Assembly (NCBI GenBank): GCA_040218535.1
Contig: JAVJRG010000012.1
Location: 1,240,001 to 1,304,000, forward strand
Source of the DNA: Lacipirellulaceae bacterium
GTDB taxonomy: Bacteria; Planctomycetota; Planctomycetia; Pirellulales; Lacipirellulaceae
DNA length: 64,000 bases
Reading direction: 5' to 3'
A program made the position numbers and the translations under genes. Every line of letters begins with the position of its first letter. Within the stretch, counting starts at the first letter, position 1. Below are positions 40,230-48,926 of this stretch, piece after piece. The notes below the pieces were generated by a model. The model was not told the DNA's origin, made no database searches, and saw only the letters and a program-made list of their open reading frames with translations.

Positions 40230-40917
40230 TATCTTTCGGCCAACGGGGTGTTCTGCACTTTTGCTCGAAACAAAAAAGCACGAGCAAAACTAACCCTATT
40301 TCCCCGATACGCGAAACCGGAACCCAATGCCGTCGCATGACTTGTGGCTCAGGTCAGCTCTGCGGCTGCCTGAGTTTGCGCGAGCAAAACTCCATGAGGT
40401 CTTGGCGATTGGGAAGCCTTCAATGGGGAAGCTTCTGGCACAAGCTGACAGCGAACGTGAAGTTTGCAGCTGAGGGCATTATAGAGGTTGGTGGGGTGGG
40501 GTGCAGTAAGGGTTTTTGGCCAGGTGAAATCTTTGGTAAGGGTGCCGCTTCTGGCTCGTCCAGCAGTGCTGACATCAAACGCGAATTGCATCTGCACGTA
40601 TGCTTCGAATTGCCCATTAGATTGCATCTCGGCTCGCAGCTCTCGACTCGGTCTTTATTGAAGCCCAAACTAACGTGCTAACAGTCTGTGATTGCCAAGG
40701 TAGCAGTGGCACCCGCCTTGTTTTGGGCAACTGATACTCGATTGAAAACACATTTAATGATAGCTTACCACTAAACCGTCGCATTCAGCTTTGCGCTTTG
40801 TCATCTAATGGTTACTTAGAGTACCCTGCCGCTTGATGTATGCGATTGGATGCATCTTCTCCTAATCGGTATCGTGGACCGAATTACTAACGAATTCCGA
40901 GTTAGCGCAGGCTATAG
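40230..40917. other. Intergenic region at the left border of defence locus 2
   Basis: 688 bases with no accepted gene. Frames of 90-110 codons exist on both strands but have no signal, family pattern or ribosome site. Base composition turns AT-rich towards 40700, probably the edge of the transferred segment. No att site or repeat was recognised. Confidence 0.5.
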
Positions 40918-42051
40918 ATGAAGAATACAAAAGACGAAGTGAACGAACTCTGCAAGAAGATTGCGGGCGAATTCCGTGGCAGAAGTTTTGACCCCTTCAT
41001 CGAGTTTATTGCGTTTCCGAATTACAAGAATTTCAGCAAAGATACCCGAATAACCTTTGAGTTTCCCCTGACAGTAGTAGTGGGTCAGAATGGAACTGGT
41101 AAGAGTTCATTGCTGCAAGCGCTTTATGGTGCTCCAGCGGGGCTTCAACCTGGCAAATGGTGGTTTGGCACGGCCCTCGACCCAATGATCTATGATGAAC
41201 TCATACGTACAGGAACACGCAAGCGGCTCAAGACCGAGGACAAGGCGGCTTTTTGGTATCAATATCGGGAAAAAGGCACGAGTCGACAGGCTGTGAAAAC
41301 AAGAGTTCGCCGTGAAGGTGATCCAGATTACTGGGAGCCGAGCAGGCCGATTAAGAGCTATGGAATGGATAGTAATGACAGAGCGCCAGTAGTGTCCATG
41401 GATGCGATCTACATGAACTTCAAAACGCAGATAAGTGCGTTCGACCGATGCTTTTATTTCAATGCGCCGGATGCGATCAGCAAGGTCGCTCGTTCTGCAT
41501 ATTGGCGCGATATAACCGCAACTGCAAAACCCAGATCAGCTAGAATTCAGGATTACCTCCGCTGGCGTTCAACAAGGCTAAAGAAGGCTTTGATAGAAGG
41601 TGAAGTTGTTAGGCATGGTCCACATGAATTTCACGAGACACGCGTAAAACTCACGTCTAATGAGCTGTCAGACATCAGCAACATAATTGGACGAACCTAC
41701 GAATCAGGTTACTTGTTGGAGCATCGCTTCTATGAGACGTGGGGAATGTCGGTCATGTTCAATACAGAAGAGAGATCTTACTCAGATGCATTCGCTGGCA
41801 GTGGCGAGTCGGCAGTCGTTAGACTCGTACACGAAGTATCGAAGTCGGAGCCAGGGCGGCTAATCCTACTAGATGAGCCAGAGACTTCATTGCACCCGGG
41901 AGCACAAGAGCGTTTACTCACCTTTTTATTGCGAGAGACCCGACAAAAAAAATTGCAGATTATCATCTCAACTCATTCGCCAGCCCTAGTCCGACTTTTA
42001 CCGAAAAACGCAATCCGTGTCGTTTCACTCAACGCGGATAATCGTATATAA
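40918..42051 (+). CDS. OLD-like AAA ATPase half (truncated by in-frame stop)
   Basis: 377 residues. Walker A is VVGQNGTGKSSL (about 57), Walker B LILLDEPETSLHPG (about 316) and the switch histidine lies in ISTHSPALVRL. This is the ABC-like ATPase of OLD-family nucleases and related defence ATPases. The frame stops at TAA 42049-42051, but the same frame resumes immediately with sequence that continues as a TOPRIM domain, so the protein looks cut short. Codon use is AT-rich compared with neighbours. It is upstream of a cytosine methyltransferase. Confidence 0.8.
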   Translation: MKNTKDEVNELCKKIAGEFRGRSFDPFIEFIAFPNYKNFSKDTRITFEFPLTVVVGQNGTGKSSLLQALYGAPAGLQPGKWWFGTALDPMIYDELIRTGTRKRLKTEDKAAFWYQYREKGTSRQAVKTRVRREGDPDYWEPSRPIKSYGMDSNDRAPVVSMDAIYMNFKTQISAFDRCFYFNAPDAISKVARSAYWRDITATAKPRSARIQDYLRWRSTRLKKALIEGEVVRHGPHEFHETRVKLTSNELSDISNIIGRTYESGYLLEHRFYETWGMSVMFNTEERSYSDAFAGSGESAVVRLVHEVSKSEPGRLILLDEPETSLHPGAQERLLTFLLRETRQKKLQIIISTHSPALVRLLPKNAIRVVSLNADNRI

Positions 42052-42783
42052 GTTACAGAGAACGTAAATGCAGACGAAGCCTTCTTCGTTCTTGGGCATC
42101 CGCCTGAGGATGTAATCCAGCTAATCGTTGAGGATCGCTTGAGCAAGCAACTGATTGATGCGGTACTACAACACAGCGATGAAGCGTTTCGCTCTCAGTT
42201 TGCTACTGTTTACCGTCCGGGTGGAGCTTCGCAAATGAAGAAGGATGCATCCATTCACATGTTGGAAGATGGCATCCGTAGGATATTCGTCTTTGACGGT
42301 GACCAATCAAACTCGGTCCAGGAATTTGATCTATCTACTGTTCCCATAGATGTCACTCCTGAAGCATTGGACGGAATGATACTTGAATGGCTAGGAGTAA
42401 GTATTGGGTTTCGCCAAGACTCTAATATGTCTGACGATCAAAAGATATCGATCCGAAAGGATTTTATTGAGTACGCTAATAAAACATTTAGAATCCTGCC
42501 ATTTGAAACTCCAGAAGCAGCAATTTGGTCTGATGAGCGCGCGCGCGACCAACTTCGAGTGGTCGGAGCAGATGAAGGACTTATTGATAAAATCACGACT
42601 CTTAATGATTGCAAGGAGAAGTTTCTGGCCCTGAGTGAAGCTACTCAACCTCTTGGTCAAAGTTTAGCCAGCAGCAATATATCAACTATACATGGGATTT
42701 TCGTGACGGGTTTTTGCAATGATGCAAACAGTCTCTTTGTAGACATGAATAATTTGCTAAAGGAAATTGCGGATAATGCTTGA
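42052..42783 (+). pseudogene. TOPRIM half of the OLD-like nuclease, in frame after a TAA
   Basis: Directly in frame with the ATPase: after the stop comes VTENVNADEAFFVLGHPPED, then VIQLIVEDRLSKQLIDAVL and GIRRIFVFDGDQSNS. The VED and DGD positions resemble the acidic motifs of TOPRIM nucleases. The only late start, TTG 42139, would fall after the VED and lose it, and there is no Shine-Dalgarno site. So either the gene is a recent pseudogene, the stop is a sequence error, or readthrough occurs. The stop of this half overlaps the methyltransferase start by 8 bases. Confidence 0.75.
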
Positions 42784-43735
42784 ATGTATTGAGTTATTCT
42801 CGGGCGCGGGGGGGCTTAGTTTAGGCCTCAGAAAAGCAGGGATTAAGGTCAGGGTTGCGGTAGATTGTGATGCTGATTGCAAAGCAACTTATGAGCTAAA
42901 TCAGCCTGGGGTAACCTACTTGCAGAATAGAGTTCAGAATCTAACCCGAAATGACTTACTAGGTGCAATAAAACATCCAAAGGAAATCGTCTTAGCAGGG
43001 GGGCCGCCATGCCAGTTGTTTAGTCGGCTCAATCGCTCACCAGTTAGCATCACGGAGGAAGTGAAAGCTTACATCCGACTAGTGCGGTCACTTCGCCCTT
43101 TGTACGTAGTTTTTGAGAATGTGCCTGCGATTAAAAGAAGGTCATCTGCTTGGGGGTTTGTAGTAGAAAGTCTTCACAGGCTTGGATACGGAGTGCGATG
43201 GAAGGTTGTTAATTGCCATGACTTTGGTGTTGCACAACGTAGAGAGCGCATGATCGTGATTGCAAGCAAACTTGAGGTCGATGTCCCTAAGTCAACCAGT
43301 GCTAAGTCGCTCACCGTTCGAGACGCAATTGGGCACTTGCCAGAAGCTAGTCAAGAGATAGTAAACCACCGCTCAATGGTTCTGAGCAAAACGAATCTAA
43401 AGCGAATTAAGAGTATCAGGGCGGGTGGAAACAGTCGGGAGCGTACAGCTTCCTTCTCTGATAGCTACGCTCGCATGTCATGGGACCGACCAGCACCTAC
43501 AATTACAACTAAATGCATTTCCTTTTCTAATGGCAGATTTGGACATCCAGTCTATGATCGGGCTATTAGTGTACGGGAAGCTGCGAATCTACAAAGCTTT
43601 CCAGAAACATACGAGTTTGTTGGGAGTCTTCTTAGCTGTGCTAGGCAGGTTGGGAATGCAGTGCCGCCCGCACTAGGCGAAGCCTTAGGCAAGGAAATCT
43701 TGCGATCCTTCAAGCGTCACAAGCGTAAGATATAG
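42776..43735 (+). CDS. C5-cytosine DNA methyltransferase
   Basis: 319 residues. SAM motif I is ELFSGAGGLSLGL. The catalytic motif IV is GGPPCQLFS (Cys nucleophile), motif VI VFENVPAI, motif VIII AQRRERMIVIAS and motif X QVGNAVPPALGEALGKE. These show a complete enzyme; the short target-recognition region is about residues 175-260. ATG 42776 overlaps the TOPRIM frame stop as ATGCTTGA. It probably protects host DNA from the OLD-like nuclease; the recognition site cannot be read. Confidence 0.93.
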   Translation: MLECIELFSGAGGLSLGLRKAGIKVRVAVDCDADCKATYELNQPGVTYLQNRVQNLTRNDLLGAIKHPKEIVLAGGPPCQLFSRLNRSPVSITEEVKAYIRLVRSLRPLYVVFENVPAIKRRSSAWGFVVESLHRLGYGVRWKVVNCHDFGVAQRRERMIVIASKLEVDVPKSTSAKSLTVRDAIGHLPEASQEIVNHRSMVLSKTNLKRIKSIRAGGNSRERTASFSDSYARMSWDRPAPTITTKCISFSNGRFGHPVYDRAISVREAANLQSFPETYEFVGSLLSCARQVGNAVPPALGEALGKEILRSFKRHKRKI

Positions 43736-43870
43736 CTATGTGATATTTTTTAGGCCTACAGGACGCAACGTAATTTCCATGTAAAAGCCAGTATTCTTGC
43801 CTTCATGCCAATAAACGGGACTGCGGAATCAATCCGTCGTAACCTAAAAAAGCAATTCTTAGTTCCCGTT
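43736..43870. other. Intergenic region, no features seen
   Basis: A short AT-rich gap between convergent genes, with no clear terminator hairpin. Confidence 0.5.
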
Positions 43871-48566: not shown

Positions 48567-48926
48567 GTGGAGGCGGCGGGAATCGAACCCGCGTGCCGAG
48601 ACCGCTCGACGCAAACTTCTACGTGTGTAGTCGGCGAATTTAGTTTCGCGGTGCGTGACGCCTCGTCGACCAGGCTTCACACGCGCTAGCTAGGAACGGA
48701 ATTTCGCCTTGAGCGTGCCCAGCAGTGACTCGCGGCTAGTTGGTTTAGGTGATGGACGTTCGCGCCGACCCAACGACGGCACGAGGCCCAGGCAGCCTAT
48801 TTCTAGGCAGCCAAAGCGTAGTTACCTTCGGCAATTGAAGGTGTGATCAGCTTTTTACGTGGCCTGCTGATCAACCACGACACGCCATTTACGCTTCGCA
48901 AATCCGGTCGAACCCTGTTCGCCCCC
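48567..48926 (-). ncRNA. ssrA: tmRNA (ssrA)
   Basis: 360 nt. The 5' end GGGGGCG pairs with CGCCTCC before the encoded 3' CCA. The T arm GGGTTCGATTCCC and the start GGGTTCGACC are canonical. The resume codon GCC (48830-48832) opens a frame encoding the tag AEGNYALAA, ending TAG at 48803-48805. Tags ending ALAA mark proteins for proteolysis. It supports trans-translation rescue of stalled ribosomes. Confidence 0.97.

What the first reader, a model, noticed from the sequence alone, without database searches (positions are those of the whole stretch)
40918..43735. OLD-like ATPase-TOPRIM nuclease split by an in-frame stop, paired with a C5-cytosine methyltransferase
The ATPase frame ends at TAA 42049-42051, and the very next codons continue in the same frame into what looks like a TOPRIM domain (LIVEDRLSK and FVFDGDQ). 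The second half has no usable start that keeps the first acidic motif. The combined gene would encode about 620 residues and overlaps the start of a complete cytosine methyltransferase. An OLD nuclease with its own methyltransferase would be an unusual self/non-self system; here the nuclease arm seems switched off while the methyltransferase is intact.
Basis: partly seen in the sequence, partly recalled or inferred. Interest (0 to 1): 0.6.

Follow-up and report, generated by a model that had tools for sequence, protein, structure and literature searches.

The report
Nuclease-methylase defence pair, nuclease gene interrupted
A planctomycete carries a two-gene module (an ATP-binding nuclease plus a DNA methylase) of a family that recurs in many bacteria and prophages, and in this copy the nuclease gene is cut by one stop codon exactly between its two domains while the methylase is intact.

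Summary
An in-frame TAA (42049-42051) separates a complete OLD-type ABC ATPase from a TOPRIM domain; the rest of the 621-codon frame is open and overlaps an intact C5-cytosine methyltransferase by 8 nt. Fourteen homologous genome loci all read through this junction. The second half alone folds like OLD and PARIS AriB TOPRIMs and keeps the family's acidic residues. So this is one conserved gene broken once (or a base-call error), not two natural genes.

The pairing is real and general. Of 73 members (15 genome loci with the window, 58 viral-collection contigs), 69 have a C5 methyltransferase adjacent or in the same gene row; in two more it lies further off (behind a transposase; in a facing operon); two members are cut by a contig edge. 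Five stand-alone HEC-04-type relatives have none nearby. Gene order changes repeatedly while proximity persists. Sampled viral-collection copies have prophage neighbours; 17 of 58 follow a repressor-like gene.

Best reading: a mobile restriction-modification-like module whose nuclease arm is probably off here. Nuclease activity and target are inferred; a guard or abortive effector attached to C5 methylase systems is the main rival. New variant of a known kind.

The parts
40918..42051 (+). OLD-type ABC ATPase half (377 aa) ending at the in-frame TAA
   Evidence: AAA_21 3.4e-21, AAA_15 8e-21; PADLOC best HEC-04 1.3e-29
42049..42051 (+). In-frame TAA at the ATPase/TOPRIM junction; homologues have variable residues here
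   Evidence: N,A,R,D,E,G,S,S,A in nine homologues
42052..42783 (+). TOPRIM half (243 codons plus TGA), same frame, no ATG/GTG/TTG start before the first acidic motif
   Evidence: model pLDDT 87.6, pTM 0.81; AriB Z 9.7 and 8.5, OLD C-termini Z 8.0-8.6
42776..42783 (+). 8-nt overlap ATGCTTGA: methyltransferase start inside the end of the TOPRIM frame
   Evidence: same in L006 and L007
42776..43735 (+). Intact C5-cytosine DNA methyltransferase (319 aa)
   Evidence: PF00145 1.6e-52 over profile positions 2-323 of 324; PPCQ, ENV, QRRxR and GNAVPP motifs seen
40500..43870 (.). Approximate low-GC island holding only this module (read from 500-base composition steps, ends not mapped)
   Evidence: GC 0.44-0.50 against 0.53-0.66 around it; GC3 0.39-0.48 against 0.70-0.74 in the two flanking genes

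Best explanation
This is a horizontally acquired two-gene restriction-modification-like module: a single-chain OLD-type ABC ATPase-TOPRIM protein and, overlapping its end, a C5-cytosine DNA methyltransferase. Shown: the gene pair, its linkage across the family, predicted folds, conserved residues, island composition, and one nonsense codon at the domain junction of this copy. Inferred: the methylase marks host DNA; the ATPase senses or loads on unmarked or invading DNA and licenses the TOPRIM site to cut; in this genome the stop removes the TOPRIM, so the nuclease arm is off (or strongly reduced) while the methylase persists. The lesion is probably recent, because the post-stop half shows no further damage.
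For: Intact full-length homologues with the same overlapping methylase. A scan seeded with the TOPRIM half gave 10 loci, 9 with a C5 methylase; without the three that were seeds, 7 of 7. 4 of 4 further Pseudomonas loci have one, full length. Among ORFs of 15 loci only two families are shared by more than two loci: ATPase-TOPRIM (15 of 15) and C5 methylase (14 of 15; the miss, L021, is cut by a contig end). In viral contigs 55 of 58 have the methylase within 200 bp, 29 of 32 clusters at 70% identity. Controls: 0 of 5 HEC-04-type planctomycete relatives in 12.5-13 kb regions (three of the five scanned against PADLOC) and 0 of 7 viral-collection loci with other OLD-type ATPases. Partner divergence is correlated: Mantel r 0.70, p 0.0002, 49 pairs. 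Gene order changed several times yet proximity stayed. E405, D406, D460, D462 in 52 of 52 non-redundant members, window included. Post-stop half diverges no faster than in other pairs: C/N identity ratio 0.51-0.79 in 8 window pairs, 0.52-0.85 in 28 others. Composition and the order-level search (only the window's genome of 396 at E 1e-50) indicate transfer.
Against: I found no experiment on any member. Some loci carry other restriction-type genes near the same protein (L018 an HpaII-type endonuclease; L094 an HsdR-like protein), and L067 faces an HEF_HK/receiver operon with a C5 methylase; a self-sufficient restriction subunit would not need these. The stop rests on one assembly. Breakage of the nuclease gene (4 of 73) against the methylase (0 of 69) is not significant (Fisher p 0.12; chance that all four fall in the longer gene 0.17). 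The Foldseek match of the TOPRIM half is modest (TM 0.36/0.41, one hit at E<=0.001).
Confidence: 0.6

Rival explanations
1. The module works as a guard or abortive effector: the ATPase senses phage attack on, or inhibition of, a C5 methylase or its restriction system, and the TOPRIM then cuts tRNA or host DNA, as in PARIS or (recalled) PrrC. The methylase is the guarded component, not a self-marker for this nuclease.
For: Highest structural match of the TOPRIM half is AriB (Z 9.7, rmsd 4.7, 170 aligned), nearly tied with OLD C-termini (8.0-8.6); AriB is reported to cut tRNA (passage of PMC12839542). In L018 the protein follows a methylase and an HpaII-type endonuclease; L067 faces an HEF_HK/receiver operon with a C5 methylase and L094 has an HsdR-like neighbour. 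PrrC/RloC, an ABC ATPase fused to an RNase domain, is listed as often found in R-M operons (passage of PMC3710099). 17 of 58 viral-collection loci, near-copies included, have a repressor-like ORF just upstream, fitting expression in lysogens.
Against: No third gene family is shared by more than two of the 15 loci compared, so there is no common restriction system to guard; but other endonucleases were looked for by Pfam in only some neighbours.
Confidence: 0.28
2. The TAA is a base-call or assembly error and the gene is intact in the organism.
For: One lesion, no other damage in 243 downstream codons; conserved residues kept. Only one assembly is held here.
Against: Weak: the contig is long (1.63 Mb) and the genome is rated 95.8% complete, 0.47% contaminated; three other members are also broken (L023, L095, L104), though those may be errors too.
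Confidence: 0.2
3. The truncated ATPase, alone or with a TOPRIM fragment made from a non-standard start or by readthrough, is still functional, as a PARIS-like split pair or an ATPase-only effector.
For: The stop lies exactly between the domains. PARIS has the two domains on separate genes (PMC10568477, passages). In E. coli YbjD the Toprim domain was dispensable for the phenotype (PMC13261556, passages). An ATC codon with GAGG upstream would keep the acidic motif. L095 also breaks at this junction.
Against: The 14 other genome loci read across the junction; L095 has a second break and intact close relatives. No standard start keeps E405. TAA ends other frames in the window.
Confidence: 0.1

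Closest known systems
HEC-04 / IbfA (stand-alone ABC ATPase-TOPRIM; PADLOC PDLC04149)
   Same: Best PADLOC match of the window protein and of all nine relatives scanned; same domain order
   Different: Window match 119.5 bits over 158-385 of 494 positions, against 145-173 bits over most of the model for three stand-alone planctomycete proteins; described as a single protein (PMC12111858, passages), while this family carries a C5 methylase
OLD family nucleases (TsOLD, XccOLD, BpOLD; P2 Old)
   Same: ABC ATPase plus TOPRIM in one chain; top Foldseek hit of the whole model is TsOLD (2.1e-12), of the TOPRIM half XccOLD (3.9e-4)
   Different: Class 1 is isolated, Class 2 has a downstream UvrD-like helicase, Class 3 a retron (passages; abstracts in the listing); none is defined by a methylase
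PARIS (AriA/AriB)
   Same: TOPRIM half closest in fold to AriB; ATPase half also scores against AriA
   Different: Two separate genes and not described with a methylase in the passages read; one gene in intact members here
PrrC/RloC (ABC ATPase-RNase in R-M operons)
   Same: ABC ATPase effector tied to modification genes (PMC3710099, passage)
   Different: HEPN nuclease domain instead of TOPRIM; its guard mechanism is recalled
Type II restriction-modification with C5 methylase
   Same: Compact two-gene unit with a PF00145 methylase
   Different: Nuclease arm is an ATP-binding TOPRIM protein, not a classical endonuclease (L018 has an HpaII-type one as well)
[quoted passage not shown] cited in PMC12839542, passages)
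   Same: OLD-ABC ATPases combined with R-M components
   Different: Primary paper not held, so whether this pair is described there could not be checked

Membership tests
OLD family (ATPase-TOPRIM) | ABC ATPase with Walker A/B and signature | tested here: met
   52 of 52, but viral-collection members were found by Walker B and signature patterns, so that count is partly selected
OLD family (ATPase-TOPRIM) | C-terminal TOPRIM with E and DxD, in the same chain | tested here: met
   Fold and residues met; same chain in intact relatives, interrupted in the window copy
Class 2 OLD / Gabija | Adjacent UvrD/GajB-like helicase | tested here: not met
   Window neighbours are GSDH, PQQ_2, DUF3500 and Glu_synthase proteins; three relatives have a large UvrD-PD-(D/E)XK-type ORF beside the pair
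PARIS | ATPase and TOPRIM on separate genes | tested here: not met
   Single frame in intact homologues
PARIS | Activation by an anti-restriction protein and tRNA cleavage | not testable with these tools
   Needs experiment
HEC-04 | Full-length match to the HEC-04 model | tested here: inconclusive
   119.5 bits over positions 158-385 of 494
Restriction-modification system | Methylase gene paired with a nuclease gene | tested here: met
   69 of 73 members adjacent or in the same gene row
Restriction-modification system | Methylation protects DNA from the partner nuclease | not testable with these tools
   No biochemical data

The most novel reading that the evidence does not exclude
A widespread, largely prophage-borne restriction-modification class in which an ATP-controlled TOPRIM (OLD-type) nuclease, not a classical endonuclease, is the near-obligate partner of a type II-style C5 methylase; frame breaks in the nuclease gene (window, L023, L095, L104) leave the methylase alone.
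Probability: 0.4. Interest if true: 0.65.

Novelty: new variant of a known kind. Interest (0 to 1): 0.5.

Why it matters
OLD-type ATPase-TOPRIM proteins are known with helicases, retrons or alone; a branch almost always tied to a C5 DNA methylase suggests that a self/non-self mark, or the state of a methylase, controls a TOPRIM nuclease. It is compact and present in named strains (Zavarzinella formosa DSM 19928, Pseudomonas agarici LMG 2112, Dyella nitratireducens CGMCC 1.15439), so this can be tested directly. The window copy is a natural nuclease-interrupted, methylase-intact variant.

Tried and rejected
Rejected: two natural genes (the 14 other genome loci do not end at the stop); chance open frame after the stop (intact homologues); stop-codon reassignment as a simple answer (TAA closes 6 of 32 mechanically listed frames of 250 aa or more in the window, this one included and antisense frames not removed).

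Led nowhere: PADLOC, Pfam and NCBIfam on the TOPRIM half (only weak HEC-01B and HEC-04 matches); plasmid and phage records searched with the TOPRIM half, plasmids with L022 and phages with a piece of L052, no match; plasmids with the whole protein gave 14 partial, mostly ATPase-side matches. A phylum search with the TOPRIM half gave one weak hit besides the own genome (L004), which has no match to the family profile and is not used as a control. A first viral-contig scan with the single protein found nothing; the alignment scan found 65 loci. No empty site: in 11 loci from relatives with the right-hand neighbour, the left-hand neighbour was not found within the short flanks. Promoter and terminator scan no better than shuffles. 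By annotation, the methylases of phages PhiR44_1 and P2_4B2 are not beside an ATPase-TOPRIM; PhiR44_1 has ParaMORC3. Rows dropped: L021 (partial) from the 72-row set; near-copies to reach 52. The 7 weak viral-collection loci L108-L114 are controls only; PADLOC names six of them (L113 not scanned) PDC-M01A, GajA-, HEC-02A- or PtuA-like, so not all need have a TOPRIM. Two of 49 methylases miss my motif pattern in the last motif (L018, L087); both show a near variant. One internal TAA listed for L018's genome is read as its terminal stop, as the frame is open for 608 aa. The controls were widened and the neighbours, literature and statistics rechecked.

Full report
OBSERVATION. The frame from ATG 40918 stops at TAA 42049-42051 and, in the same frame, stays open to TGA 42781-42783. 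The part before the stop is a complete ABC-type ATPase (AAA_21 3.4e-21, AAA_15 8e-21). The part after it matches nothing in Pfam or NCBIfam and only weakly the PADLOC models HEC-01B and HEC-04 (0.002 and 0.004). No ATG, GTG or TTG in frame precedes its first acidic motif. The methyltransferase is a full-length PF00145 protein (1.6e-52) that starts at ATG 42776, so the genes overlap by ATGCTTGA.

INTACT HOMOLOGUES. In 397 genomes of the class, 9 matched at 1e-10 (own genome included); two matched over the full length without a stop, at 40-41% identity (L006, L007), and in both a C5 methylase starts inside the last codons with the same ATGCTTGA. L008 is cut by a contig end and also uninterrupted. 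A genome-collection scan with an alignment of the TOPRIM half gave 10 loci, L014-L023, three of them the seeds L006, L007 and L008 again. Nine of the 10 carry a C5 methylase ORF, that is 7 of the 7 that were not seeds; the tenth, L021 (= L008), is the contig-end locus. In L018 the methylase is separated from the ATPase-TOPRIM gene by one gene, an HpaII-type endonuclease (PF09561, 2.5e-112). In 398 genomes of the genus of L022 (Pseudomonas agarici), 5 matched at 1e-40, L022's own included; the 4 new ones all have a full-length C5 methylase beside the gene. At the stop position nine aligned homologues have N, A, R, D, E, G, S, S, A. L023 (Pseudomonas otitidis) is broken elsewhere, at a run of eight A, with a full-length methylase ORF.

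HOW GENERAL IS THE PAIR. All-against-all comparison of ORFs of at least 90 aa in the window and 14 genome loci (flanks of different length) found two families shared by more than two loci: the ATPase-TOPRIM in 15 of 15 and the C5 methylase in 14 of 15. A viral-contig scan with the full alignment gave 65 loci; 58 are full members (L050-L107) and 7 are distant. Of the 58, 55 have a C5 methylase within 200 bp: 41 downstream on the same strand, 10 downstream and convergent, 4 upstream; each covers at least 321 of 334 profile positions. The three others: L088 has a Mutator-family transposase between the gene and a convergent methylase; L067 faces an operon with a receiver-domain protein, an HEF_HK ATPase and, 4.6 kb away and cut by the end of the fetched stretch, a C5 methylase; L090 ends at the contig edge. 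By cluster the figure is 29 of 32 at 70% identity. Controls: five planctomycete relatives (L009-L013) have no C5 methylase in 12.5-13 kb regions; the three of them scanned are HEC-04-type. None of the seven distant viral-collection loci has one; these are other OLD-type ATPases (six of the seven scanned). 69 of 73 against 0 of 5 gives Fisher p 6e-6, with the reserve that members are related to each other. Nuclease and methylase divergence are correlated (Mantel r 0.70, p 0.0002, 49 pairs). On a tree of 52 non-redundant members the label for methylase position needs 11 changes, those to 'none' included; well supported branches alone force at least 4 for 'upstream' and 2 for 'convergent'. So the genes stay together while their order changes, which speaks for functional linkage. 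The window groups with the two planctomycete homologues (100/99).

FOLD. The joined window protein with nine relatives gave a model of mean pLDDT 81.9, pTM 0.67; its best Foldseek match is the OLD nuclease of Thermus scotoductus (2.1e-12). The TOPRIM half folded alone gave 87.6 and 0.81. Its best Foldseek matches are C-terminal regions of Xanthomonas and Burkholderia OLD (3.9e-4 and weaker, TM 0.36/0.41); in the second look the first rows are PARIS AriB (Z 9.7, rmsd 4.7, 170 aligned; another entry 8.5) and those OLD regions (Z 8.0-8.6), then a hypothetical Pyrococcus protein 7.4, TsOLD 6.9, GajA 5-6, with unrelated folds at about 4. E405, D406, G436, D460, G461 and D462 are kept in 52 of 52 non-redundant members and K566 in 51 of 51; the window has all of them. 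Members from genomes L014-L023 were found by TOPRIM patterns, those of the viral collection by ATPase patterns, so each motif is partly selected in one of the two sets.

AGE AND NATURE OF THE STOP. The post-stop half shows no further stop or frame break. Its identity to relatives, relative to the ATPase half, is 0.51-0.79 in 8 window pairs and 0.52-0.85 in 28 other pairs, and it keeps 18 of 20 residues that are invariant in the nine other rows, against 18 of 18 to 18 of 20 for the others. So the lesion is recent, or it is a sequence error; these cannot be told apart here, as one assembly is held. Four of 73 members are broken in the nuclease gene (window, L023, L095, L104). L095 is broken twice, once at the same domain junction, while two relatives about 98% identical in DNA (L055, L066) are intact. 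None of 69 methylases is broken, but the difference is not significant (Fisher p 0.12).

ORIGIN. The module sits alone between ordinary genes (GSDH on the left, PQQ_2, DUF3500 and Glu_synthase proteins on the right). GC is 0.44-0.50 against 0.53-0.66 around it, and GC3 0.39-0.48 against 0.70-0.74. A profile search of 396 genomes of the order found only the window's copy at E 1e-50. Elsewhere copies lie on viral-collection contigs: sampled neighbours include terminase, portal, replication and Sak4-like proteins (10 proteins of 8 loci), an integrase and CI/S24-type repressors, and 17 of 58 loci, near-copies included, have a repressor-like ORF within 1.2 kb upstream.

MECHANISM. Shown: the gene pair, its linkage, predicted folds, residues, composition, and the stop. 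Inferred: the methylase marks host DNA and the ATPase licenses the TOPRIM to cut unmarked or invading DNA. The main rival is a guard role, suggested by the AriB-like fold and by L018, L067 and L094, where other restriction-type or signalling genes are present. Either way the TOPRIM is missing from the normal product of the window gene, so the nuclease function is probably lost here; an ATPase-only function is possible, since deletion of the Toprim domain of E. coli YbjD left its phenotype (PMC13261556, passages).

LITERATURE. Full-text searches for OLD or TOPRIM with methyltransferase and related terms: no title or abstract listed describes this pair. In one search the listing is ordered by the number of terms held and its first rows hold two of three, so no paper in that library holds 'old family', 'cytosine methyltransferase' and 'toprim' together. 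Passages seen: PMC12111858 (HEC-04/IbfA), PMC10568477 (OLD review), PMC12839542 (BREX survey; [quoted passage not shown] cytosine methylases with another ABC ATPase clade), PMC13261556 (YbjD), PMC2292703, PMC7824862 and PMC3710099 (no mention of this pair in the passages shown). Four of the seven papers were seen in the listing only. The 2020 ABC ATPase survey is not held; it may describe this pair, so I do not claim a wholly new system.

Noticed in passing
L018:3-4108: Bacteroidetes locus with C5 methylase, HpaII-type endonuclease and ATPase-TOPRIM gene in a row, the last two overlapping; the protein can join a type II system.
   Followed up: partly
L023:5350-5401: Pseudomonas otitidis member whose nuclease frame breaks at a run of eight A in a variable linker; could be phase variation, a lesion or an error.
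   Followed up: partly
L095:4863-6655: Member broken twice in the nuclease gene, once at the ATPase/TOPRIM junction, with a full-length convergent methylase; L055 and L066, about 98% identical, are intact.
   Followed up: partly
L067:4980-11599: ATPase-TOPRIM gene facing an operon of a receiver-domain protein, an HEF_HK ATPase and a C5 methylase, near a phage portal gene.
   Followed up: no
L088:6772-7983: Mutator-family transposase between the nuclease gene and a convergent methylase.
   Followed up: yes
L019:1714-4692, L020:1818-4727, L096:7870-10803: Large ORFs directly beside the pair: UvrD helicase with PD-(D/E)XK nuclease in L019 and L096; the L020 ORF is similar to that of L019 by BLAST.
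   Followed up: no
L094:7093-10035: HsdR-like type I restriction protein just beyond the ATPase-TOPRIM gene.
   Followed up: no
L050:1694-2947: A second C5 methylase near the pair.
   Followed up: no
L115:3947-6995: Phage PhiR44_1 carries an annotated Dcm and ParaMORC3 between its gpA and gpQ genes, perhaps a cargo site.
   Followed up: no
window 48567-48926: tmRNA gene on the minus strand with tag AEGNYALAA.
   Followed up: no
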